From Clytia hemisphaerica (taxonomy: Eukaryota > Cnidaria > Hydrozoa > Leptothecata > Clytiidae), in assembly GCA_902728285.1 (NCBI GenBank), contig CACVBU010001147.1:969466-1033465 (forward strand): 64,000 nucleotides of DNA, given 5' to 3'. The notes under the pieces were generated by a model. It searched no databases and was not told where the DNA came from. It worked only from the letters and a program-made list of their open reading frames with translations. Position numbers and translations under genes: made by a program. Shown here piece by piece: positions 27,216 to 44,899 of this stretch. Each line of letters starts with the position of its first letter. Position 1 is the first letter of the stretch.

Positions 27216-27468
27216 TTGATGGCTATGCATGTTTGCCTCCTCTGGATGAACATTACCGTCAACTGCTCCAATTTGGGACGAGTGTGCGCAACATGGGACT
27301 TGTTGATATCTGGCCTATATTTTCATTTACTGTTAAATCTCTTTGACAACAAATTTGCTTTGATAACTCCACCAAGTTTATCAATCATACTTTCGGTCAT
27401 AACATGTCACGATAACTTACTGATAGGGCGCCCTTTTTAACTTTAGTTTTCATTCAAAATGACCGGAC

Positions 27469-27998
27469 TGTTGATGGAGAGAGAGTGCTCCATCGTTATG
27501 AACATTTTATTGGCCGTGTTGTTAATGTTTCTGTGTTTTGATTAGTATTCCCTGTAGAGTTTTTTAGTTTTCATGTGTCTCTTGAGTCCTCTTTTGTTTG
27601 GTGTCTCTTTTGTTTTAAGTGTCTTTTGTATCCCCAAGTTGCGTTTTATACGTTTTATATGTCATTTGTAATTCCTCTAGGGAAATTAGGATATGTTTAT
27701 TAACTGTAAATTTTGTAGATAGAAATTAGTTCAACACTGAGAGACGTGAGTGAGTGTCTTGTGTGTGAGAGGTGCGTTTTACTAAAGTTTAATTTACTGT
27801 CGTTTTATTTCGGTTCTTTTTTGTTTTATTACATTTTAAGTTGCTTTAAGTTCAAGAATTGGTGTTTGCATTTTACATTTTCTGTTCTCCATTTTCTGTT
27901 TGGTTTCCTTAGGTTACACAGGTTCCTTTTTGTCCATTAAGGCTGAGATATTTCGACCAGTCAAATTATTCAAAACATCGTCGTTCTCTCCACTCACA
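27469..27998 (+). repeat. left LTR (530 bp)
   Basis: Starts TGTTGATGGAGAGAGAG and ends CTCTCCACTCACA. It differs from the right LTR at about four sites. Preceded by CGGAC. Confidence 0.85.
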
Positions 27999-29057
27999 AG
28001 TAAATTAAACTAGTATCTGTATTTCTGTTTCCATCTGCATTTCTGTCTCCTATTCATATGTTTGAGTAGTGCGTGTGTGAAAGTGTTGAACTCCTCTTGC
28101 GTGTGCTAGAGTGTTTTGAATTTTTTTTAAATTTTCTGATTTTGATTTTTTGTTTTTCTCATATGTTTGAGACTTTCTTTTGACTTTAGATTCTTTTGAA
28201 TTTTGTTTCCAGATTTTTCGCTTGCCGTTTTTGAGATATTTTGCATTTTTTGTCGAGATTTTTTTTTTATTTCTTTGAACTTCCTGTCACTTTTTTGAGC
28301 TGAGTTTTGAGTCCGTATACTAACGTGGTATCGTTGTCCGCACACTAGACGTAGTGTCGTTTGTTCCGTGCAATAGACGTGTTGCCGTGGGGTTTCCATT
28401 GGTTGGAAACTATTGTGAAGTCTTGTTTTTAGCACAAGCATTTTGTGGCCAAATTATTCTTCAGAGAGCGAGAATTGCTTTGTTCCTGTGTGAACACGCG
28501 TTGTAACTCAGTAAAGTGACTTTGGTTTGTTCGAGATTTTTGTTTCGTTTTTTTTTTTTTTTTTTTTGACTTTTTAATTTTTATTCATTTTGCATTTTGG
28601 TATCGGTTTGATCTTCGCTAGAAAAGAAATTTGAAGTTTGATCATTTTTTGCATTTTTTGGTCTGTCACCATAGGGAGAGTGTTTTGAAATTGTTTTGTC
28701 TCTTCAGAGATTTGTTTTATTGGTTTTTATTATAGCCATTTCTCCTTTTTCTCATCCTGAGAAGAGTTTTATGTTAATCATCTTTTAGTTCGCACGGTTT
28801 TGAGTGTTGATTGCCATATATGTAGTTGTCATAACATAATTTTTATTAAGAATTTTGGATGTTAATCACTTAAGTGTGAAAATCCACCTAGATTTTATAT
28901 TGAACATCATATATAATAACAATAATACAATTTTGGTTTCTGGATGTTAATCACTTAAGTGTTGAAAATCCAGCTAGGTTAGGTTTTCGCCTGAAATTTT
29001 GTCATCGTTTATAATAAGAACATTATACCATCCTTGTTCCACAAATTTTTATCTGTC

Positions 29058-29837
29058 ATGTCTGCCCATGGAAAATTTCATGCTGAAATATTTGGCAAGA
29101 TTAAATCACTTGAAAGGTTGTTATGTCATGTGTCATCTGAGTTGAAAGCTTTGAAAAATATTTATGTTAATTCTGCTTATAACCATAGTACCAATTTTCC
29201 ATCTTGTTTTAAATCTCCGCAAAAATCAGTATTTGTTCCTAAGCCACCATCTGCATCTAAGCCAAAGCATGTTAGAAAATTTGTTTTTGTAAAGCCTAGT
29301 TCTGGAAAATCTGACATTGGTTCGAGACCTTCTGTTTTTGACTTGGAAAAATCTTCATTTTATAAGAACAAAACTTTGAGGCAAAAGTACAATTTTATCA
29401 TGAGGGAAAGGTTATGTTTTGGTTGTCTTCAGAAAGGTCATGTGTCTGTTGATTGTAAGAGCTCGAAAGTTTGTGATATATGTAATTTGAGTCATCCTAC
29501 ATCACTTCACGAATTTAGTGTGAAAAGATCATTAATTGTTGAGAAGTCAATCTTTGTTGAACGTGATTCTGAAAAGGAGTCTGAAAGTTCGATCGATTTT
29601 GTTGAAAATGAATCTGTTTGTATTACGCCTGATTCTGATCGCCAGTCGCACGTTCAAAAAGATTGTATGAAATCTGAAACGCCATTTGTTAAAGTTTTGA
29701 AAGTAAGTGAAGTATCGTCCTATTCAAAGAAGAGAAGCTCGTCGTCCCAAACCTGGCAACAACGCATTGACGATCCATCCGATATTAATACAGATCCAGA
29801 CCCTGATGTCCCACCCTGGCAAATTGATCCGCCCTGA
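29058..29837 (+). CDS. gag-like protein with zinc knuckle, BEL/Pao style
   Basis: The first ATG at 29058 gives about 259 residues ending in TGA. The middle is basic and Ser/Lys rich. Around residues 120-145 is a CCHC knuckle (CFGCLQKGHVSVDC, C-x2-C-x4-H-x4-C) followed at once by CDICNLSHPTSLH (C-x2-C-x3-H-x4-H). This paired arrangement is typical of the Gag region of BEL/Pao retrotransposons. In an autonomous element the frame would continue into protease and polymerase; here it ends at a stop about 135 bp before the right LTR. The gag core upstream looks short. Likely role: nucleocapsid-like packaging of the element RNA, or none if defective. Confidence 0.7.
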   Translation: MSAHGKFHAEIFGKIKSLERLLCHVSSELKALKNIYVNSAYNHSTNFPSCFKSPQKSVFVPKPPSASKPKHVRKFVFVKPSSGKSDIGSRPSVFDLEKSSFYKNKTLRQKYNFIMRERLCFGCLQKGHVSVDCKSSKVCDICNLSHPTSLHEFSVKRSLIVEKSIFVERDSEKESESSIDFVENESVCITPDSDRQSHVQKDCMKSETPFVKVLKVSEVSSYSKKRSSSSQTWQQRIDDPSDINTDPDPDVPPWQIDPP

Positions 29838-29973
29838 CGAAGTGACGTAACACCCAATGTTCGAAAGTTTGTGATCAAATCGAGAAAGATCAACCAAGTA
29901 TGGTAAAAGATTCCCCACCGAAGAGCCAACGAAATTATAGATCAAGATTTGGAAAATCTTGAGGGGAGCCATA

Positions 29974-30503
29974 TGTTGATGGAGAGAGAGTGCTCCATCG
30001 TTATGAACATTTTATTGGCCATGTTGTTAATGTTTCTGTGTTTTGATTAGTATTCCCTGTAGAGTCTTTTAGTTTTCATGTGTCTCTTGAGTCCTCTTTT
30101 GTTTAGTGTCTCTTTTGTTTTAAGTGTCTTTTGTATCCCCAAGTTGCGTTTTATACGTTTTATATGTCATTTGTAATTCCTCTAGGGAAATTAGGATATG
30201 TTTATTAACTGTAAATTTTGTAGATAGAAATTAGTTCAACACTGAGAGACGTGAGTGAGTGTCTTGTGTGTGAGAGGTGCGTTTTACTAAAGTTTAATTT
30301 ACTGTCGTTTTATTTCGGTTCTTTTTTGTTTTATTACATTTTAAGTTGCTTTAAGTTCAAGAATTGGTGTTTGCATTTTACATTTTCTGTTCTCCATTTT
30401 CTGTTTGGTTTCCTTAGGTTACACAGGTTCCTTTTTGTCCATTAAGGCTGAGATATTTCGACCAGTCAAATTATTCAAAACATCGTTGTTCTCTCCACTC
30501 ACA
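29974..30503 (+). repeat. right LTR (530 bp)
   Basis: Direct copy of the left LTR, TG...CA, followed by the target duplication CGGAC. Confidence 0.85.
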
Positions 30504-31273
30504 CGGACGCCGAATGGAGAATTAGAGAACGCCCGCCGCCTAACCACCTACCGCCCAATGGGATTAACAAATAGCGAGTGTGTAACTTGCCGCGCGAGTG
30601 ACGTCAAATGCTCACATTTGCGTGTGTTGTTCCACTACAGAAATTTTTCATATTTCGATTTAAAAGCCTACTCGGTGCGAAAGAGAAATTGTGTATTTTT
30701 CAATACGCGGTTCATTAAACCCAAATCAAATGACTTTGGAGGTTCGATGAAATGGTGGTGAAATGGCCATCCCATGTTGTGGAAGATAGTCCCAAGTTGG
30801 AGCAGTTGACGGTACCTGACTTCACAGTACTCCACCACTTCAGTTGATGCAAGTGTACCAAAAAGTATCCCTCAGGCTCAGCTGTCTCAGCCACACTGGA
30901 AACCTTTTGTCCAGTGTTCCTTCCGGTGTTAAATTTTTAGAACTTCTGGACACCGGACAAAGTTTGTTTGAAAAATAATACGCACCAGACACACTGGACT
31001 CAAGTCCGATGTTAAAAGGTATCCTCATCCAACACCAGACTTTTCATGTCTGGTGTTTGTAAAGTCTGGTGCATTGTGGGCGGGCAGGGTCCAAGTCGTC
31101 CGTAATACAAAGCAGATAATTTCCGGCCCAAATGGGTCAAGTAATTTAATATGCAGAACTTAGTCAATAGTTCGTCATGTTCTCCCAAACAACTATTTAG
31201 AGAAATCTATAGTCTAGCTTTAGCGGACTGACTACTGAGTGTTTTTTTTTATTTTCAGAGCACCATTCTAAGG

Positions 31274-31675: not shown

Positions 31676-32111
31676 TTCAAAACCTACCTCACTCAATAAA
31701 CCTGGACATTATACTAAAGGTCATAGTGTGGTTCTATTATTTACGTACCTTCTCAAGGTAACCTTAGCAATAAATTATAGATGGAAATGAGTCTTCAAAC
31801 AATAAAAGCACCAGACGTGACATGATTTGTGACTACTGCCTTTTTGCTTTTTTTCAAAGATAAATCTGGTTTCTGTGAGTTTGTTTATGTTTCCCGTTTC
31901 GGAATATTATACCTGGTTGAACACGCAAGCTATAAATACAGCAATTCTTGATATAGAAAGTTGAGGGTGTGTTTGACCACGGATATTAGCGCCTCTCTTC
32001 AAAAAGCGCGCGTTTTAACGCACTTTCGTTTTCAGGAACAGAAAAAGCAGATTTTTAATACCAAAAGCAAGCCAGCACCACATTCGTAGCACCACATTCA
32101 ACACCACTTTC

Positions 32112-34942
32112 AAAATGATATACAACATGAGTCAAATATATTAACAAGCATACTTTTGTATAAATTGTAAAAAAAGAGAACAATGAAACACCTGAAAAGA
32201 CCAAAATGATGAAAAACTGAAAAGAAACCCTCGAAAAAGTAGCCTATGTAATCGTCTAACCCACAACACTCAAACATGTAAGGACGTCAAAATTTCCGTC
32301 AGTTTGGAGTCCTTCAGTGCCGCTTGTTCTGGGGTAAACGAACGACTCGATCGTTCACCTCTCAGGCAAGCAACCACTGATCGGATCAAAACGAAGGAAA
32401 TTTTGCGTCGTATGCCATTCACAACCTCACTTTTCGAGCATTTTTGTTTTGCCGAGATTTTATCAGCTAACCTGCTCATAAAAATTGAGCATTCTCGGGC
32501 TACACCACCTGTAGCACCAAATACTAATGGGGTGAAAGTCCCTTTCTCAACTTGAAGAATCCGTTCGTTATATGCTCTCTTCTTTTGCTTTTCAAGGGAA
32601 GTGAATGTAGTGCCAATAGATTTTATGCGATAGCTCGGAGCTAAAAGGTTGCAAACCTTCACGTCAAAAAATGCTCTTTGATACCGCTGCCAAAATCCAT
32701 TAGCACTAACATCCGCCCTAGCTTCATTCCCAGTAACAGATGAGCGTGGTAAATCGACCTGTTCACGAGACAAATCCATAAGCTGGGGCTCGATCGACAC
32801 GTCGTGACAGACTTCATTCATCATGGTTGCCAGAGTATCGCGAACGTTGTTATGTCGATGGATAACGTAGCCGCCAAGATGGCAAGATAGCGCATGGTCG
32901 ATTGTGAAGTTGGCTGAGCAGGCACATTTGATGGGCAGTCGCTTCATTTCCCAGCCATACCTCATGTGGAGTGCGTCAGCGAATTCACGTTTATTCAATA
33001 CAAAATTCTCTTCTTTCAGTGGAAGAGTGGTCAGCCACGAGGAAGCACCTTGAGATGAAGCGATTTCCAAAGCTTTTTGGTTGATTGATGGGAGTTGTTG
33101 AACGATTTGATCGAGTGATCGTTTTTGTTCTCCAATTCGTTTAGCGGCTAGTGATTTCAACATCTTTTTCGATTGACTTGGATCAATTGATTCATTTGAT
33201 TGTGTTATGATGCGCTCGACTAGCACTTTAGTTGCCAACCGACTTGTTTCGTTTTGAAATTTAGCCTCATCCTCGATGTTGATGATTCCAAGGCCTCCCA
33301 TCTTGATCGGAAACGAGAGGATCTTCCTTTCAATATCGGAGCACTGTCTGCCATCACATATGGCTGGTATGAGGTGAAAACGGATGACATTTTCGATGGG
33401 TCGAAGCAATTCTGATATATCGTCTAGAGTTCGGAAGATATAGTTGAATTTTTGCCGGTAGCCAATAACGAAGGCGACATACGCAGCTTGGGGTTGAGTT
33501 ATTGCAATGTCTGACAAAGTTTTGATTTCTTTAACCCAGGTTTCGACTTTATTTGAAACGAATTCCTTCTTGTAGCTTTTTTCCCCAACAGAAGCACCGA
33601 GATGTTTATGCCCCTTTGCTGTGATCTTTATAGACGTACCTTCGAATGTGTCGAGTGCCGTTTGATACATTTCGGGTTTTACTATCAACCATGACTTAGA
33701 AGGTTCTGGGTAGTAGCCGATAGTTGGACCGAGTTGCGTTAGGTCATCCCACCACTTGCGTAGTGCAACAAGTTTACCAGCACCAGTGATGTCGTCAGCG
33801 TACGCGACTTGTTTGGTATCTGGTACGTTTCGTAGGGTGTCGGTCAAGGGAAGCAAACATATGCCGTAGAGAGCCATAGCGATCGGATCTCCTTGTGTTG
33901 TACCTTCAGAAGACGACAGCTCTGCTCCTCCAATCGCAAACAGACGGACGTGGTTCGAATAGCAGTTGGTAGCAAACATCGCCAAGGTTGGACAAAGGAT
34001 GTTAATGTTGTGCATCATAACTTCACGATTTATGCTGTTAAATGCATTTGAAGCGTCGACCAGTAGAACACCGTCTGTGTTCTCGTCGTTGTAGATGTCT
34101 GCCATCGCGTGCACTGCAGCCTCACATCCACCCAGCTGACCAGCGCACAGTTGGAGATTGCCAGCTGCTTCTTGTATTTCATTCCTCAGGAATGTTGTAA
34201 CAGTCTTTCCAACGATGCGTCTAAGAACTTCCCCGATGCCGATCGGTCGAATGCCGGGGTTCTTATCCAAAGGTATCAGGGTGCACGATAAGAACGCCTC
34301 CATGTCCCTACCGGATTCTTTGTTGCATTGTTCAGTGCACATGATTCTCGTCATCCTTGCAATCGCCTTGCACAAATCACTAGAACGATCACCGAAGTTT
34401 TTTGACAAAAGGATACGTTGCCACATTTGTGCATCGATCTTGGAGGGGCCGGAAGAACCTTTTGTTTTAGCTGCCATACTTTTTATGAGTTCTTCATCGA
34501 TGGCTTCAAAAAGCGTGGGGTCGATTTTGTTGAATGGTCCCTGAACAATCAGCTCGTCAATCTTTGGTTGACCTCTAGGATGCTTTTGCTGAAGAATTTG
34601 CAACGTGGTATCGTTGATTGGTACAATTCCGTGTGAATTCGTTGAGTTAGATAAGAGTTTGATTGCTGCGTTTACTTTGCCTTGAAACATCAAATCACTA
34701 AATCGTTTCGATATTGATGTAACTCGATCAGCAGCAGACTTTGAAAATTTTGATTGTAGCATTCGGCTTTCGCGGATCAACGAGTCAAAATCGCCTTCTC
34801 TCCAAAGATCCAGACGTCGCTGTAGATGTTTCGTATGTTCTCTCGATTTCGATGTCTTTGATGGTTTCTGTAAAAGGAGCGATGGTAACACGGACAGGGC
34901 TTTCAAGGCGACATTCGACAAAGGTGACAGATTGTTCCATAA
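32112..34942 (-). mobile_element. RT-encoding non-LTR element nested in the left foldback arm
   Basis: The 16-bp sequence ATTCAACACCACTTTC occurs at 32096-32111 and 34943-34958, bounding a 2831-bp insert. The uninterrupted site survives in the other arm, as the complement at 38738-38753. The insert reads on the minus strand, with about 160 bp of 3' UTR after the stop at 32270 and no poly(A) tail. The 5' end abuts the coding frame with no UTR, so it may be 5'-truncated. Confidence 0.85.
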
Positions 34943-35122
34943 ATTCAACACCACTTTCGCAGCACCACATTCGCACTTTCGTTTTCGCTCCAGCACCACA
35001 TTCGGGACTTTCGTTTTCGCTCCAGCACCACATTCGGCGATTCCAGCACCACATTCAACTTTCTGCCCAATTTTCATACTGAAGGAGAGTATTCCTATCC
35101 TGGAAATTATGATTCCTATCAA
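32270..35122 (-). CDS. reverse transcriptase with C-terminal zinc and PD-(D/E)xK-like motifs, fused to arm repeat
   Basis: An unbroken 950-codon minus-strand frame; the first codon at 35122 is TTG, so the true start is uncertain. Codons 1-60 come from the foldback arm (ECGAG-type repeats translated from the short repeat) and codons 61-950 from the inserted element. RT motifs are clear: VLLVDASNAFNSINR (motif A), EGTTQGDPIAMALYG (motif B) and VAYADD at about residues 439-444 (motif C). A Cys/His motif CACSANFTIDHALSC lies at about 733-747. RADV...FFDVKV at about 802-820 has the shape of the PD-(D/E)xK nuclease of R2/NeSL/Hero-type non-LTR elements. No AP-endonuclease is present at the N terminus. 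Similar proteins are abundant in cnidarian genomes as far as I recall. Clade assignment is inference. Confidence 0.8.
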   Translation of the reverse strand: MIGIIISRIGILSFSMKIGQKVECGAGIAECGAGAKTKVPNVVLERKRKCECGAAKVVLNLWNNLSPLSNVALKALSVLPSLLLQKPSKTSKSREHTKHLQRRLDLWREGDFDSLIRESRMLQSKFSKSAADRVTSISKRFSDLMFQGKVNAAIKLLSNSTNSHGIVPINDTTLQILQQKHPRGQPKIDELIVQGPFNKIDPTLFEAIDEELIKSMAAKTKGSSGPSKIDAQMWQRILLSKNFGDRSSDLCKAIARMTRIMCTEQCNKESGRDMEAFLSCTLIPLDKNPGIRPIGIGEVLRRIVGKTVTTFLRNEIQEAAGNLQLCAGQLGGCEAAVHAMADIYNDENTDGVLLVDASNAFNSINREVMMHNINILCPTLAMFATNCYSNHVRLFAIGGAELSSSEGTTQGDPIAMALYGICLLPLTDTLRNVPDTKQVAYADDITGAGKLVALRKWWDDLTQLGPTIGYYPEPSKSWLIVKPEMYQTALDTFEGTSIKITAKGHKHLGASVGEKSYKKEFVSNKVETWVKEIKTLSDIAITQPQAAYVAFVIGYRQKFNYIFRTLDDISELLRPIENVIRFHLIPAICDGRQCSDIERKILSFPIKMGGLGIINIEDEAKFQNETSRLATKVLVERIITQSNESIDPSQSKKMLKSLAAKRIGEQKRSLDQIVQQLPSINQKALEIASSQGASSWLTTLPLKEENFVLNKREFADALHMRYGWEMKRLPIKCACSANFTIDHALSCHLGGYVIHRHNNVRDTLATMMNEVCHDVSIEPQLMDLSREQVDLPRSSVTGNEARADVSANGFWQRYQRAFFDVKVCNLLAPSYRIKSIGTTFTSLEKQKKRAYNERILQVEKGTFTPLVFGATGGVARECSIFMSRLADKISAKQKCSKSEVVNGIRRKISFVLIRSVVACLRGERSSRSFTPEQAALKDSKLTEILTSLHV
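34959..35080. repeat. outer-arm short repeats (left arm)
   Basis: Successive copies of agcaccacattc separated by gcactttcgttttcgctcc-like spacers. The block is repeated in inverted form at 38617-38737. Read on the minus strand of the left arm it stays open and encodes ECGAGAKTK-type peptide repeats. Confidence 0.8.
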
Positions 35123-36112
35123 GCCTTATCTATTAGCTTCCATTTAAAGCCAAAATGAAGTCTATATCACCATTTCTTTTCATAGCCTCGCATTATAAAG
35201 ACACCTCGGTAGAGTACTGAAAATCTTAATTTTGGTGTTTTGGACTAGAAATTGTACTGAAGGAGAGTATTCCTATCCTGGAAATTATGATTCCTATCAA
35301 GCCTTATCTATTAGCTTCCATTTAAAGCCAAAATGAAGTCTATATCACCATTTCTTTACATAGCCTCGCATTATAAAGACACCTCGGTAGAGTACCGAAA
35401 ATCTTAATTTTGGTGTTTTGGACTAGAAATTGTACTGAAGGAGAGTATTCCTATCCTGGAAATTATGATTCCTATCAAGCCTTATCTATTAGCTTCCATT
35501 TAAAGCAAAAATGAAGTCTCTATCACCATTTCTCTTCATAGCCTCGCATTATAAAGACACCTCGGTAGAGTACCGAAAATCTTAATTTTGGTGTTTTGGA
35601 CTAGAAATTGTACTAAAGGAGAGTATTCCTATCCTGGAAATTATGATTCCTATCAAGTCTTATCTATTAGCTTCCATTTAAAGCAAAAATGAAGTCTATA
35701 TCACCATTTCTTTTCATAGCCTCGCATTATAAAGACACCTCGGTAGAGTACCGAAAATCTTAATTTTGGTGTTTTGGACTAGAAATTGTACTGAAGGAGA
35801 GTATTCCTATCCTGGAAATTATGATTCCTATCAAGTCTTATCTATTAGCTTCCATTTAAAGCAAAAATGAAGTCTATATCACCATTTCTTTTCATAGCCT
35901 CGCATTATAAAGACACCTCGGTAGAGTACCGAAAATCTTAATTTTGGTGTTTTGGACTAGAAATTGTACTGAAGGAGAGTATTCCTATCCTGGAAATTAT
36001 GATTCCTATCAAGCTTTATACATTACCTTCCATTTAAAGCCAAAATAAAGTCTCTATCACCAGTCCCCTACTCAGCCTCACGTTTTAAAGACATCTCGGT
36101 AGAGTACCGAAA
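35081..36112. repeat. 178-bp tandem array (left arm)
   Basis: Five full units and one partial, each starting GAAGGAGAGTATTCCTATCC and containing tcctatcaagccttatctat and cacctcggtagagtac. The period is 178 bp at every step counted. Units nearest the outside are almost identical; the innermost partial unit is the most diverged. Confidence 0.9.
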
Positions 36113-37778
36113 ATGTTTTGCTTTCAAGATTATGAAATACATAGTCGAATGAATATTCATAATATTCATAAGAAATGGTTTGAGAATTTGCCGTATTTTT
36201 TGTCTAAACACTTCATTTTAATGTTACGTGGTAGTGTTAAAATTTCAAAGCCGCCTTACTTTATGGTTATTCGCATATTTTGGATTGTGAGTCGTCTGTG
36301 ACAACGTTTGGGAGCGCTAGTTTTATGATATATTTTATGGTTTATGAATTAATTCAAAATTAATTTCACAGGTCACAAATCAAGCTAGCAAATCAAGTTA
36401 AAAAGTATGTTGACGTTTCTTTTAAAGAAATAATTAAAAAAGCAATTATAAGAGCAATAGCATGGTTTGTGTGTGGTGCACATAGGTGGGCTTCCAAGAG
36501 GCCAGTATTCCGTTATATGACATTTTTCATCTAGACGTCTTCCGGTATTGATCTTTACTCAGTAATCTACCGGTATATTTTCAAACAGACCGGTACAGTA
36601 ATTCGGTATCGTTGTTCAAAAAAAGGCGAAAAGAGGGGCTTAGAAACAGCCACTGATAACTCATAAAGATGACATACATTATAATTGATGCCTTCATCAA
36701 TGACTTCATAAAGAAAATGTTTTCACTTTGTTATTTCAAATTATTGAGACATATTGTACGAGTCTGCTAAATGACGTGCCCTACGTGCCCACGTGCCTTC
36801 ATTTTTTTGACGTGCCTTCGTGCCCTACGTGCCTGGCGTGCATTCGTGCTTGCGTGCCTTACGTGCCCAACGTGCTAACGTGCCCTCCGAAATTTGACGT
36901 GCCCGACGTGCTATGTTTCTAATATTAATAGGAGATAAACATCTTTGAATCACACTAGTTTAACCCTCTCTCTCGAAGCGTTCCTTATGATAAAAGCCTG
37001 GTTATACATAGTGCGTGATGCAGGGCCCAGAGTCATTGCAGGTGGAGGACCCTGGTCTCCCCACGTTTATAAAAACAAAAGGAAATTTTTAATCCCTAAC
37101 GGACTTTCAAGAACCTCTGTTATTTGCAAAATCATTCCAAATTATGGTCGTATTGAAGCAAATAAAAGAGGGTCAAAATTAGATAGTTTTCTCTTCGGCG
37201 TATAACATATGTTTTTTTGTCATTCCATTTTTGGGAGCAAAACAGGGGCATCGATTGGAGTCATCAAACAACATCGGTTATTTCTAGTCAGGTACTTAGC
37301 AAAATCTCACTAGTCATACTCTACAACCTCTGGCCATTTAGCTTGCACAAAAAAGTTTCCAGCGATTCGTTTCGATAGTGCCAGTATTGTCAGATTTAAT
37401 TGACTTTTTGCCAGAACCTGTTTTTGAGAATTCTTTGACCGAGATTAAGGAATTTCAAGAAAAAATTACTGGCATTTCGTACCCCCATTTTCTTAACCCT
37501 CCCCCTCTACTGCTGCGAGAGCAAAGGTATTTTCTTTAGAGTAAACTACAAACTGAGTCGTCCATAATTTGTATCAGAATCAGGGCTTGTTTGTATATCT
37601 TTTTGAGCGTTTTAAGCATGTGAGTACTAAATTTGAACTTATTTTTTTCGCTTTACTTTTTTAAAAAGAGCTCTGGCCATGTCCATATAGTACAGATCAT
37701 ATATAGTACTATCTCACAGACCCGGTGGGAGGTGGGGACGATGGGACCAACAATACATTGAACAAAGCGGGATGCCGA
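36113..37778. other. central spacer of the foldback-like element
   Basis: About 1.7 kb between the inverted arrays. It includes a short ACGTGCC-type repeat run at 36775-36910 and two small open frames (36113-36301, 36945-37205) that I cannot link to a transposase. A single CACAGACCCGGTGGGA end of the MITE family lies at about 37717. No complete gene is seen. Confidence 0.5.
36775..36910. repeat. degenerate ACGTGCC short tandem repeat
   Basis: About 14 irregularly spaced copies of (C/T)ACGTGCC or close variants with TTCGTGC and GCGTGC interruptions. It is a minisatellite-like run within the central spacer. Confidence 0.65.
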
Positions 37779-38620
37779 GGTGCCTTTAAAACGTGACGCT
37801 GGAAAGGGAAATGATAGTAGAGACTTCATTTTTACTTTAAATAGAAGGTAGTATATAAGGCTTGATAGGAATCATAATTTCCAGTATAGGAATACTCTAC
37901 TTCAGTATAATATTTAGTCCAAGGCACCAGAATTAAGATATTCGGCACTCTACCGAGGTGTCTTTAAAACGTGAGGCTGGGAAGGGAAATGGTGATAGAG
38001 ACTTTATTTTGGCTTGAAATGGAAGGTAGTAAATAAAGCTTGATAGGAATCATAAAATCCAGGATAGGAATGCTCTCCTTCAGTATGATTTTTAGTCCAA
38101 AACACCAAAATTAAGATATTCGGCACTCTACCGAGGTGTCTTTAAAACGTGAGGCTGGGAAGGGAAATGATGATAGAGACTTCATTTTGGCTTTAAATGG
38201 GAGCTAATAGATAAGGCTTGATAGGAATCATAATTTCCAGGATAGGAATACTCTCCTTTAGTACAATTTCTAGTCCAGAACACCAAAATTAAGATTTTCG
38301 GTACTCTACCAAGGTGTCTTTATAATGCGAGGCTATGAAGAAAAATGGTGATAGAGACTTCATTTTGGCTTTAAATGGAAGCTAATAGATAAGGCTTGAT
38401 AGGAATCATAATTTCCAGGATAGGAATACTCTCCTTCAGTACAATTTCTAGTCCAAAACACCAAAATTAAGATTTTCGGTACTCTACCGAGGTGTCTTTA
38501 TAATGCGAGGCTATGAAGAGAAATGGTGATAGAGACTTCATTTTGGCTTTAAATGGAAGCTAATAGATAAGGCTTGATAGGAATCATAATTTACAGGATA
38601 GGAATACTCTCCTTCAGTAT
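37779..38620. repeat. 178-bp tandem array (right arm, inverted)
   Basis: Five units in the opposite orientation to the left array, with the same 178-bp step. The innermost copies carry more substitutions and the outer two match the left array most closely. Confidence 0.9.
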
Positions 38621-39045
38621 GAAAATTGGGCAGAAAGTTGAATGTGGTGCTGGAATTGTCGAATGTGGTGCTGGAGCGAAAACGAAAGTCCCGAATGTGG
38701 TGCTGGAGCGAAAACGAAAGTGCGAATGTGGTGCTGCGAAAGTGGTGTTGAATGTGGTGCTACGAATGTGGTGCTGGCTTGCTTTTGGTATTTTTAATCG
38801 TTTTGGCAAGCTCCACAATTCACCATTCACTTTTTGCTCTTTCTCTTTTATCATAACCAATGACGTACTTATAATACTCAACTAACGTAAGTAAAGTCTA
38901 TCTTTATAGGTAATCAAATATATTTAAGGTAAAGCAAGCGTGCCACTTTAGTGTCTTCTTTCCGCTGCTGTTTTTTCTCTGGACATACCATCAGCAGATA
39001 CCAACAGCAAAAATATTCTTTTATGCTTCATACAAATGCATAGAC

Positions 39046-39477
39046 AGTTACATCAATATGCCAAAAACATTTTGTTCAACCACCTTCACTTCGAGATAGG
39101 CCACCATAGAATGAACTTCCTTTTATAGGATGAACCATATTCATGTGGCTTTCAGCCTTGCACTCCATCACAGAGCCTATTTGAGATATTTTATAACTAG
39201 CCCAGAGAAAAATTTTAAACCTTTATTGAATGCATGCCTTTTTAATACATGAAAACGCGCTGTGGTATAGTGGTCATTGACCTTGGTTACTGCACAGGCG
39301 ACTGAGGTTCGATTCCCACTCGCAGCGGTTCACTTGGCAAGTGAATGAACCTTCGTCCGGGTCAACCCATGCCATGTGAGGGGGATTGGGTAGTCAGTCC
39401 AAGGTGCTGACGGGGCACTCATTGAAAGCGTCTATAGTTGCGAAAATAGGCCTCAAAGCCTCCTGCAACTCAACCAA

Positions 39478-39511
<34 letters not shown>

Positions 39512-39622
39512 CCACATGAATACGGTTCATCCTATAAAAGGAAGTTCATTCTATGGTGGCCTATCTTGAAGTGAAGGTGGTTGAACAAAATGTTTTTGGC
39601 ATATTGATGGAACTGATAGATA
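39046..39622. repeat. inverted repeat pair with ~105-bp arms, SINE inside
   Basis: Arms at 39046-39156 and 39511-39622 are near-perfect inverted copies (atcaatatgccaaaaacatt ... tataggatgaaccatattca). The 354-bp spacer holds a tRNA-derived SINE next to the right arm. Probably a MITE that received a SINE. Confidence 0.7.
39256..39510 (+). mobile_element. tRNA-derived SINE with 30-nt poly(A)
   Basis: The head reads cgcgctgtggtatagtggtc (A box) and gaggttcgattcccactcg (B box), spaced as in a tRNA promoter for RNA polymerase III. A tail of about 150 bp of non-tRNA sequence follows (gtccgggtcaacccatgcca; tcaaggtgctgacgg-like) and then 30 consecutive A. No convincing target duplication is seen. 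It shares the GTGGTATAGTGG start with the SINE at 20287 but has a different, longer body. Confidence 0.75.
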
Positions 39623-39696: not shown

Positions 39697-42600
39697 TTAC
39701 GCATCCATCCTGTGAGGACCGATGTAAATTTTCATATTGATGATGCTGTTTGTTTCAGCTCGTCTCATCATAGTGTAGCCAGTCACGAGTGGCTCGTCGG
39801 GAACTGTAAAGAGATATTTATCCAGCTCAGTTTTGAATTTCAATTTCTTGCACCCAGTGAGATCCCTCAGACGTTTTGGCAGCGAGTTGAAAAGCCTTGG
39901 TCCTTGGACTTTAAAACTTGAGTATATGACTTTTTGCCAGGGCCCCCTTTTCACTAGTGGTATGTGACATTTTCTTCCTTGTCTGGGATTGGCATAGAAC
40001 GTGATTGTCCCAGGATTTGGGACAAGCTTCTCAATAATACACCAAGTGTATATGATAATATATCTTTCACGCCTTCTCTGCAGTGAAAACAGTTTTAATG
40101 TTTGTAGTCTTTCCCAATAGTTTTGGTTGTGTAGGTTTTTAATCCTCCTTGTGAATGATTTTTGGAGATCTTCGATCTGCTGGATCAGATTAACTTCATT
40201 GGGTGACCATAGTTGAGAACAGTTGTCGATGTGTGGTATGACTAAAGACTTCCAAAGAGTGAGCATGACATCATGTTCTCTTGAGCTAAATGTTCTCAGA
40301 ATCCAACCAATGAGTATCTGTACTTTTTCTACAATGGTTAGAATGTGTTGGTTGAATTTCGCATCGTCTGACATGGTAACACCAAGATCCCTTGTTGAAG
40401 ATTTGGTTTGGATTATCTTTCCTTCACCTGTGAAATAACTGGTGGCTGGTCCGTTTCCATAATGGAGATGCTCGAACTTTTTTCCATTTAACATCATTTT
40501 GTTTATGGTCGACCATTGATAAACATTGTTAAGGTCGTTTTGTAGGTGAAACTGGTCAATGATGTTTTGGATTCCTTTCTTTACTCGTGTGTCATCAGCA
40601 AAACTTGCAAGTTCCGCTTTGGTTGTCCCTTCATCAATGTCTGATATCATGATGATGAAGAATAATGGCCCAAGAACCGATCCTTGAGGTACTCCTGATT
40701 GAATTTTTGCCTGGTATGACTTGTGACCGTCTACAAATACTACTTGGTTTCTGTCTTGAAGAAATGACTTAATCCATTTAAGTAGTTTGTCTGTTATTCC
40801 AATAGATTTCAGTTTTGATAGCAGTATCCTGTGGTCGACTTTATCAAATGCTTTTGAAAAATCGAGATATACAACATCTACATCCAATCCTTCTTCTAGT
40901 TTTGATAGGATACTGTCATAGTGGCTGAGTAATTGACTAAGGCATGATCGCCCTTCCCGGAAACCATGCTGTGTTGGGTTGAACAAGTCATTGTTGTTGA
41001 TAAATTCGACTATCTTCTTTCGAACTATTTTTTCAAACACCTTGGTGATATGGGACGTAAGTGATACTGGCCTGTAGTTAGATGGCTCTCCTTGATCTCC
41101 ACCCTTTGATATTGGTGTGATATGATTTCTTTTGTGAATTTCCTCTGTTACTCCATGGTTCAGACAGTTCCTCCAGAATATTGCGAGTGGCTTAGCAAGT
41201 TCTTCTTTGCAATTTTTCAGCAAAATCGCAGGAAATCCATCAGGACCGGGAGCAGAGTTTGGTGACAATGTTGAGATTGCTTCAATGAAATCTTTTTCGT
41301 CAAAGTCTATGTCTTTTAGCACGTTTGGACATATTGTTGGATGAGTGACGTCATTTTCCGATGGTACACTGAAAACCGATGTGTATTGGTCTTGGAGTAT
41401 ATTAGCAATACGGTCAGCATCATATATCAAAGAATTATTTTTGTCACGCAGTGGTCCAACTTTGGATTTTGATTTACTATGCTTTTTTGCATATGCATAA
41501 AAAAATTTAGGATTGTTTTTTATTGATTCTGTTGCCTTCCTTTCCTGGCTTTTCTTCTCTGATTCGTAGGATAGCTTTAGTTTAGTTTCAATGTCTATTA
41601 ATTTTTGTTTGGATTTTGCATTTTTCATTGGGTTTGGAAATTTTCTAAAAATGTTTTTTCTTTTTCTGAATAAAATCTTTCGCTCGCGTGGTATCTTCTG
41701 AAATTTTTTAGTGTTTGGTTTTCGTTTTGGTACATATTCCTTAATTATGTCTATGATCCAGTCTGTGATTGTTGACAATTGGTCAGCTGTCGGTTGATCA
41801 TGAAGGTCTGTCCACAATTTATCCTTCATTTTTTCCTTGATTGATACCCAGTTTATTGTTTTTGAATGAAAATTGTACTCATCAAATACATTACGCACAA
41901 CAAAGGGATCCTCCTTTTGGAAACTTGAGTGTAAATCAAAGTGAATTTTAACATTGATCATTGAGTGATGGGATATGTAATCTGGTGATGGGGCTGATTC
42001 ATAGCTGTGTATTAGTAGAGGGTTATTTGTGAGCATTAAATCCAGTGTATTTCCTGCTTTGTGTGTGGCTCCTCTAATGTGTTGAATCAGGTTATGGTCA
42101 TTCATAAGAGTGAATATTTCACTAGTCATTCTTTGTTCCTCTGTAGATGCCCCAGGGTTTGAGCACTTGCTGTCCCAATTTGCGCGTGGCAGGTTAAAAT
42201 CACCTGCTATGAAGATGTCTGGTGTTTTTCCTTCAGTTTTGTCTAGTTCTGATTTAATTAACTCTATAACTGGTTTGAATTGTTCATTTTTAGATGGATT
42301 CCTGTTTGATGAGTCGTCTGGCTGTCGGTATATTCCCCATATTTGGATATCCAATGTAGTCGAACTCAGACAGATGACTTCGATAACGCCATTTGAGTGT
42401 GTAACGGTCTGTTTGAAGTGTGATGAAATATCTTCTCTCATGTATATAGCGACACCACCACTACATCTTCCAAATCGTGACTTTGGTCTTTTTCTGTCGG
42501 ACCGAAATATTTCATAGCCTTCTATGTTTAACTCAGCATCATTATGGTCTTTGAGCCAAGTTTCTGTTAAAATCATAAATAAAAAGTTATTCTCAATCAA

Positions 42601-43945: not shown

Positions 43946-44261
43946 TGGTCCTAAATCCAACAGCTCTGCCTAAATCCGACCCCCCAAATAACTGCTATGA
44001 AAAAAATTTCTATGTTTACAAAAATTTCCTCTCCAAGTTGAACAATAAATTATTGCAAGAAATCTCAAAACAAAACATCAAACAAGATGACTATAATGTC
44101 AAGATGTCAATTAATGTGATCAAAAAAGTGTGAGTTGTAAAAATAATTACCTCTATTATTCTGAATCTGTTGCTCGTGTTTAAAATGTTAAGAATTTTGT
44201 AATAAAAAATTATGTTTTGTATAAGAAGCAATTATTATTATTTGGTTCAATTGGTTCAATG

Positions 44262-44845
44262 TACCGTCAACTGCTCTAACTTGGGACTATCTGACAAAAC
44301 ATGGGACAGCAATTCGGCCACCATTTCACTGAACCTCCAAAGTCATTTGATTTGTTTTGATTTGAGTTAATGAAAGACTTATTACAAAATACATGATTTC
44401 TCTCTCGCACCGAGTAGGCTTTTAAATCGAAATATGAAAAAAATTCTGTAGTGAAACACTTGCGAGTGTACGCCCGCTCTACAACACAGATATCTACAAA
44501 AGTCCATAAAATCTAGAGTCGTATTGTCAAATCTGTTAACTTTACGCGGGGTTGGTTTCTATGCACTAAATTTCAAGTCTGCTCATATCAACTAAATCAT
44601 AGAAACCAGGCTCTTGCTGACATATATTCATCTCATCGCACGGCCTGTTACATAAAAGCATCTTGAGAGAGCAAGACATTAAAAGATGACCTGAATGGTT
44701 AATTACTTTTGTCAGATGCAGCTTTTGGTAGAAGTATCAAAACAAATTTGTTGTCAAAGTGATTTAACAGTAAGTAAAAATACAGTCCAGATATCAACAA
44801 TCCCATGTTTCGACCAACCATCCCAAGTTAGAGCAGTTGAGGGTA
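44262..44845. mobile_element. MITE, TACCGTCAACTGCTC family, intact copy
   Basis: Ends TACCGTCAACTGCTCTAACT and the complement of ...AAGTTAGAGCAGTTGAGGGTA, flanked on both sides by AATG (44258-44261 and 44846-44849), a 4-bp target duplication. It is homologous over both halves to the split copy at 27254-30814. No transposase. Confidence 0.75.
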
Positions 44846-44899
44846 AATGGCTCAAAACATATTGGGCTAAGTGTTGAAATTTTCTTCTTTATAATACAG

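What the first reader, a model, noticed from the sequence alone, without database searches (positions are those of the whole stretch)
32051..38798. Foldback-like element whose inverted arms are 178-bp satellite arrays
The termini are inverted (ACCAAAAGCAAGCC), framed by an exact 9-bp direct repeat (ATTTTTAAT), and each arm carries five or more tandem units with a constant 178-bp step. This is a complete, datable insertion that mobilises satellite-like DNA of nucleosome-scale period. It offers a route by which satellite arrays could spread through a genome. The outer units are the most alike between arms and the inner ones the most diverged, as expected if exchange or conversion works from the ends. 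No transposase is visible in the 1.7-kb centre.
Basis: partly seen in the sequence, partly recalled or inferred. Interest (0 to 1): 0.88.

Follow-up and report, generated by a model that had tools for sequence, protein, structure and literature searches.

The report
Foldback transposon with satellite-like arms
This is one copy of a jumping-gene family whose two mirror-image ends contain short satellite-like repeat arrays; at least 28 related places were found in the same genome, the plan closely resembles elements already described in a fruit fly and a beetle, and this copy has itself been hit by a second, unrelated jumping gene.

Summary
The element is 32060-38789, with ends ACCAAAAGCAAGCC and a 9-bp duplication ATTTTTAAT. 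Its inverted arms hold 178-bp units (5.8 left, 4.75 right) around a 1.66-kb centre without detectable coding.

The uninterrupted right arm is the empty site, and near-identical copies of this insert lie elsewhere in the genome.

The window's genome (417 Mb) holds at least 28 loci with these arms. Of 20 copies with mapped ends, 13 have an exact 9-bp duplication (one is uninformative poly-A); cross-pairing copies gave 0 of 380. No recognisable transposase was found in any centre scanned. This is a non-autonomous foldback family, probably moved in trans by a Mutator/Rehavkus-type transposase.

The outer-to-inner gradient is mainly inherited family-wide, with little sign of exchange between the arms of one copy. 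No free satellite arrays were seen; every scored array match lies in an element locus. Close precedents are Tetris (220-bp units, Drosophila) and Rehavkus-1_TC (164-bp units, Tribolium). It is a new family of a known kind.

The parts
32051..32059 (.). left 9-bp target site duplication ATTTTTAAT
   Evidence: exact match to 38790-38798
32060..32111 (+). left outer arm domain, first part (terminus ACCAAAAGCAAGCC and the first three motif copies, one of them imperfect)
   Evidence: inverted match to the right end
32112..34942 (-). nested R2-class non-LTR retrotransposon, 2831 bp, probably 5'-truncated, one open frame from its 5' end to a stop near 32270
   Evidence: exact 16-bp TSD ATTCAACACCACTTTC 32096-32111 / 34943-34958, right arm is the empty site; family profile matches solved R2 proteins, best 9.7e-12; genomic copies of 99-100% identity
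34959..35076 (+). left outer arm domain, second part, containing a 31/32-bp tandem repeat
35077..36117 (+). left array of 178-bp units (5.8): five outer-class units, then one inner-class unit
36118..37774 (.). centre, 1657 bp, no detectable coding
   Evidence: homologous to the centres of other copies
36760..36911 (.). 152-bp segment (ACGTGCC minisatellite) in the centre, not matched in the other fetched copies but found at ten other genomic places
37775..38620 (-). right array of 178-bp units (4.75): two outer-class units, a mixed one, two inner-class units
38621..38789 (-). right outer arm domain (169 bp, uninterrupted), terminus ACCAAAAGCAAGCC
38790..38798 (.). right 9-bp target site duplication ATTTTTAAT

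Best explanation
A non-autonomous cut-and-paste DNA transposon of foldback type. Shown: the inverted termini; arms made of an outer motif domain plus 178-bp arrays; a centre without recognisable coding; 9-bp target duplications at many independent insertions; at least 28 related loci in one genome; and a later R2-class retrotransposon insertion in the left arm of this copy. Inferred: a transposase supplied in trans by a Mutator-superfamily (MULE or Rehavkus) element binds the terminus and/or the repeated AGCACCACATTC motifs, excises the element and joins it to 9-bp staggered cuts. Inferred: unit number in each arm changes by unequal exchange or slippage, in this copy among outer-class units, largely independently in the two arms.
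For: Ends and TSD. 13 of 20 copies have exact 9-bp TSDs and 14 of 20 at most one mismatch, against 0 of 380 cross-paired controls; one of the 13 (L014) sits in poly-A and is uninformative. The same arm-array-centre plan recurs at other loci. Outer domains are within 2 bp of 139, 170 or 201 bp in 35 of 38 arms, i.e. steps of one 31-bp repeat, and the two ends of a copy differ by more than 10 bp in 11 of 19 copies, so arms change independently. Neighbouring units L4/L5 (0.6%) and L1/L2 (1.1%) are closer to each other than to any unit of another fetched copy, which indicates local unit duplication. 91 PF10551 (MULE) matches show that MULE-type transposase sequence is present in the genome.
Against: No transposase-coding relative with these termini was found. 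Of the 91 MULE matches only two share a contig with an element locus (C791, C797), and both are over 600 kb away (positions compared by eye). Assignment to Mutator rests on TSD length and long arms, which other superfamilies could mimic. 6 of 20 copies lack a 9-bp match at up to one mismatch: by eye in the same output L012 has 8 bp, L023 7 bp, L033 12 bp, and L017, L020 and L021 none.
Confidence: 0.82

Rival explanations
1. A reverse-transcriptase-bearing element whose own structure includes the inverted satellite arms (RT and arms are one mobile unit).
For: A long RT open frame lies between the termini.
Against: The RT segment has its own exact 16-bp duplication inside the left arm, and the right arm shows the uninterrupted sequence. 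None of the 25 loci fetched matched it. Ten near-full-length copies of the 2831-bp segment at 99-100% identity, plus others truncated at various 5' points, lie at other loci (40 of 158 candidates scored).
Confidence: 0.01
2. A P-superfamily (Galileo-like) foldback rather than a Mutator-type one.
For: Galileo also has long arms with internal tandem repeats containing extra transposase-binding sites (PMC4079207, Discussion).
Against: The commonest TSD here is 9 bp; Galileo makes shorter duplications (recalled, 7-8 bp). No THAP or P-type match in the scanned centre fragments and frames. The genome was not searched for THAP or P-type genes.
Confidence: 0.1
3. An inverted segmental duplication or assembly palindrome of a satellite array rather than a transposon.
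For: Large inverted arms.
Against: Arms differ at 77 of 1015 positions; the same termini recur at many loci with locus-specific TSDs.
Confidence: 0.02
4. Gene conversion after insertion, working inward from the ends, produced the gradient between the arms of this copy.
For: In-register divergence rises from 2.3% to 16.5% inward. Second units show a weak within-copy excess of similarity (0.097 against 0.107; 190 of 5000 permutations as low).
Against: Outermost units: within-copy 0.069 against between-copy 0.068. Innermost unit L6 is 2.0% from unit 5 of L020 but 9.9% from its nearest unit in this copy; R5 is 2.3% from innermost units of L012, L014 and L017. Outer-domain lengths differ between the arms in 11 of 19 copies.
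Confidence: 0.1

Closest known systems
Tetris of Drosophila virilis (Dias et al. 2014, PMC4079207; abstract, first part of Results and first part of Discussion read)
   Same: Foldback with an external arm domain followed by tandem ~220-bp units in both arms, a non-coding centre, TSDs of 8-10 bp, no autonomous partner found, placed by its authors in Mutator on TSD size and earlier suggestions.
   Different: The unit here is 178 bp; no sequence comparison with Tetris was made. Tetris units also form free satellite arrays of up to 66 copies; none were seen here. In Tetris the unit shares 37 bp with the external domain; here no such similarity.
Rehavkus-1_TC of Tribolium castaneum (passages of PMC10218199 and PMC6446971 seen)
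   Same: A 164-bp satellite (TCsat23) in short arrays, mostly of five and eight monomers, in the inverted termini of a DNA transposon; Rehavkus TSD is 9 bp.
   Different: Rehavkus-1_TC is 9.5 kb, and the Rehavkus group has a PHD-finger transposase; none was recognised here. PMC6446971 describes a minisatellite only before the 3' TIR of Rehavkus.
Drosophila FB/NOF foldback elements (recalled)
   Same: Inverted arms of short tandem repeats, including a 31-bp one, and 9-bp duplications (recalled).
   Different: No 178-bp arrays in FB (recalled); no NOF-like gene was recognised here.

Membership tests
Foldback (FB-type) transposons | long inverted arms built of tandem repeats around a middle domain | tested here: met
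TIR DNA transposons | conserved inverted termini at independent insertions with target duplications | tested here: met
   13 of 20 exact 9-bp TSDs, 0 of 380 controls
Mutator superfamily (MULE) | TSD of 8-11 bp | tested here: met
   9 bp is the commonest; range as given in PMC6446971
Mutator superfamily (MULE) | MULE (PF10551) transposase encoded or demonstrably acting | tested here: inconclusive
   none in the scanned centre fragments and frames; 91 matches elsewhere in the genome, none near these loci
Rehavkus | 9-bp TSD and satellite units in inverted termini | tested here: met
   feature taken from passages of PMC10218199 and PMC6446971
Rehavkus | PHD-finger Rehavkus transposase | tested here: inconclusive
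   no PHD match in the scanned fragments and frames; the genome was not searched with a Rehavkus transposase
R2-class non-LTR retrotransposon (the nested insert) | R2-related reverse transcriptase, target duplication, copies truncated at the 5' side | tested here: met
R2-class non-LTR retrotransposon (the nested insert) | C-terminal zinc knuckle and restriction-like endonuclease | tested here: inconclusive
   conserved Cys/His and acidic columns and one weak match in that region to 8ibw (5.1e-5); assignment partly recalled

The most novel reading that the evidence does not exclude
The 178-bp units are a functional part of the mobile element (docking or spacing array for the transposase), kept at about 2-9 units per measured arm across the family. 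Outer units are repeatedly re-amplified, while inner units keep arm-specific identity through many rounds of transposition. The genome would then show a satellite-like repeat confined to mobile arms, possibly a stage before a free satellite forms.
Probability: 0.3. Interest if true: 0.45.

Novelty: new member of a known kind. Interest (0 to 1): 0.36.

Why it matters
It adds a multi-copy example of foldback arms built from satellite-size units in a genome of unidentified host (12 of the 13 relatives found for a host gene are unnamed; the named relatives listed for the nested RT are from the hydrozoan Clytia). With at least 28 loci of one family it allows a direct test of whether such arms seed satellites and how unit arrays expand. 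Here, as far as searched, the arrays stay inside the elements, and the gradient between units is mainly inherited rather than made by exchange after insertion.

Tried and rejected
Searches of viral contigs, genome contigs, plasmids and phages for the arm or unit gave nothing, as expected for a eukaryote. Rfam gave nothing on the window. Derivation of the 178-bp unit from the outer domain or the centre was not supported (scores within shuffles). The RT-as-part-of-the-element idea was rejected. End-directed exchange was tested and not supported. Host identification by the F-box gene found 13 relatives besides the window's own; 12 are unnamed and the named one (a plant) is a remote match. Paper searches: found Tetris; Rehavkus; listing only; two searches found nothing, and searches returned only Tetris. 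Passages only were seen of PMC12628747 and PMC13359780; neither changed the reading.

Left undone: whole-genome pattern searches for the unit and the terminus, and a DNA search with the terminal 60 bp, did not complete, and no MULE locus was fetched. An autonomous partner sharing only a few dozen terminal bases therefore remains untested.

Dropped before counts: of the 26 fetched loci (L009-L034), L024, L026, L028, L030, L031, L032 and L034 were left out of the TSD count because one or both ends were missing, truncated, masked or outside the stretch; L034 was fetched later. One search used 20 copies with both arms and left out L021, L026, L028, L030, L031 and L032 (L034 not yet fetched). One search used 19 copies. 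L001-L008 are cut-outs and were not counted. Centre fragments of the window: 32 of 32 scanned. Frames of 110 aa or more listed for the other loci: 25 of 25 scanned, with one match over its cut-off, an EF-G C-terminal domain in L028 in a stretch that runs past the matched centre, and two sub-cut-off matches in L030 (CapR, rpo132). Frames of L034 were not scanned.

Full report
Observation. The stretch 32051-38798 is an insertion with inverted termini ACCAAAAGCAAGCC at 32060 and 38789, framed by an exact 9-bp direct repeat ATTTTTAAT. Tandem Repeats Finder gives 178-bp arrays at 35077-36114 (5.8 units) and 37775-38620 (4.8 units), in opposite orientation; the inverted arms are 92% complementary over 979 nt. 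The 9-bp word itself occurs at 7 places in this AT-rich window, the two duplications included, but an exact match abutting both ends has a chance of about 9e-6.

Arm anatomy. Each arm starts with a GC-rich outer domain of 170/169 bp, identical between arms except for two mismatches once the insert in the left arm is set aside (the one-base gap shown there comes from an off-by-one join in my script, corrected). It carries AGCACCACATTC six times perfectly and once with two changes, at offsets 14, 28, 40, 54, 85, 117 and 138 in both arms; the window outside the element has no match with up to one mismatch. The 178-bp array follows. The 1657-bp centre has no stop-to-stop frame above 88 aa, and all 32 of its fragments of 30 aa or more gave only three sub-cut-off Pfam matches. 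The unit is not similar to the outer domain or the centre beyond shuffles.

The missed nested element. A long open frame with a reverse transcriptase domain (2.1e-8 for the 892-aa piece) lies in the left arm. Its DNA, 32112-34942, is bracketed by an exact 16-bp repeat (32096-32111, 34943-34958), and the right arm shows the uninterrupted sequence. Of the 17 aligned relatives nearly all extend further at the N terminus, many with a C2H2-like pattern, so this copy is probably 5'-truncated. A profile of the 18 sequences matches solved R2 retrotransposon proteins at best 9.7e-12. The genome holds ten near-full-length copies at 99-100% identity and others that start at various points but share the 3' end (40 of 158 candidates scored). 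This is an independent, young non-LTR retrotransposon.

A family in the genome. The window lies in a 417-Mb assembly of 951 contigs, at C791:969466-1033465. Two outer-class units gave 148 matches (40 of 89 candidates scored), two inner-class units 141 matches (40 of 93), the outer domain 41 matches (40 of 56) and the centre 89 matches (40 of 355). Grouped by eye, these fall in 28 loci with arm sequence, the window included, and one with centre sequence only (C797); the centre search also hit ten further places through its 152-bp minisatellite segment alone. All counts are lower bounds. I fetched 26 loci. Most show outer domain, array, centre, inverted array, outer domain; several are partial, and L034 shows the left half, then a stretch open in all six frames (probably masked), then remnants.

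Target duplications. Of 20 copies with ends mapped, the window included, 13 have an exact 9-bp duplication and one more has a single mismatch; one of the 13 (L014) lies in poly-A and is uninformative. Of the other six, L012 shows 8 bp, L023 7 bp and L033 12 bp of exact match by eye in the same output, and L017, L020 and L021 none. L020 and L021 are two copies that abut each other, L021's left flank is masked and its right end is truncated. Pairing left flanks with right flanks of other copies gave 0 of 380 matches at up to one mismatch. No strong target preference is visible in the 14 targets tabulated there.

Mechanism. Inverted ends plus 9-bp duplications at independent loci show insertion in the manner of a cut-and-paste transposon. 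No recognisable transposase was found: the 25 frames of 110 aa or more in and beside the centres of 25 other loci gave one match over its cut-off, an EF-G C-terminal domain in L028. The transposase is therefore probably supplied in trans (inference). Long arms and 9-bp duplications point to the Mutator superfamily, Rehavkus included. 91 MULE-domain matches exist in the genome; only two share a contig with an element locus, each over 600 kb away. The motif array is the best candidate binding site (inference).

The gradient. Units of this copy fall in two classes with seven fixed differences: outer (L1-L5, R1, R2) 2.4% apart on average, inner (L6, R3-R5) 11.8% apart, and 12.9% between classes. 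The same classes recur in other copies: the outermost unit is of outer class (TATG at the diagnostic sites) in 30 of 46 arms, and the innermost unit is of outer class in only one (L010 right); 14 of 46 arms have no such outer-class unit at all. Innermost units are arm-specific across copies (A-A 0.102, B-B 0.072, A-B 0.142), and outermost units are no more alike within a copy than between copies (0.069 against 0.068; 2831 of 5000 permutations as low). Second units show a weak within-copy excess of similarity (190 of 5000). The gradient is therefore mainly inherited. Local duplication of units is visible (L4/L5 0.6%, L1/L2 1.1%), and the outer domain itself varies in 31-bp steps (35 of 38 arms within 2 bp of 139, 170 or 201) and differs between the two arms of 11 of 19 copies.

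Satellite spread. Every scored unit match lies in an element locus (by eye), and the longest array in the loci is 8.7 units. A free satellite is not excluded, since only the best candidates were scored and the pattern search did not complete.

Known relatives. Tetris of Drosophila virilis (PMC4079207; abstract, first part of Results and first part of Discussion read) has the same plan with 220-bp units and 8-10-bp TSDs. Rehavkus-1_TC of Tribolium has 164-bp satellite units in its inverted termini (passages of PMC10218199), and Rehavkus has 9-bp TSDs (passages of PMC6446971). The finding is a new family of this known kind.

Noticed in passing
window 27469-30494: LTR-like direct repeats (about 520 bp, first 300 at 99%) with TG...CA ends and a 5-bp flanking repeat CGGAC by eye, enclosing a frame with a weak, sub-cut-off zinc-knuckle match (28995-29831): probably a short LTR element, itself inside the inverted pair 27254-27298/30770-30814.
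   Followed up: partly
window 27254-30814 and 44259-44848: Two inverted-repeat pairs share the terminus TACCGTCAACTGCTCYAAYTTGGGAC, perhaps a second DNA-transposon or MITE family.
   Followed up: no
window 39045-39615: 108-bp inverted repeat, 97% complementary, 355 nt apart, enclosing an A-run of about 35 nt at its right arm.
   Followed up: no
window 39697-42600 (-): 967-aa frame with endonuclease and reverse transcriptase domains, a second kind of non-LTR retrotransposon.
   Followed up: no
window 32019-32033: 15-mer CGCACTTTCGTTTTC in the left flank is identical to part of the element's outer arm (1 of 300 shuffles as good); possibly a relic of an older copy, or chance.
   Followed up: partly
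L020 / L021 (C220, about 239.5-248.2 kb): Two family members abut: one lacks the last 34 bp of its right end exactly where the next begins.
   Followed up: partly
window 36760-36911: ACGTGCC minisatellite segment in the centre of this copy, found at ten other genomic places.
   Followed up: partly
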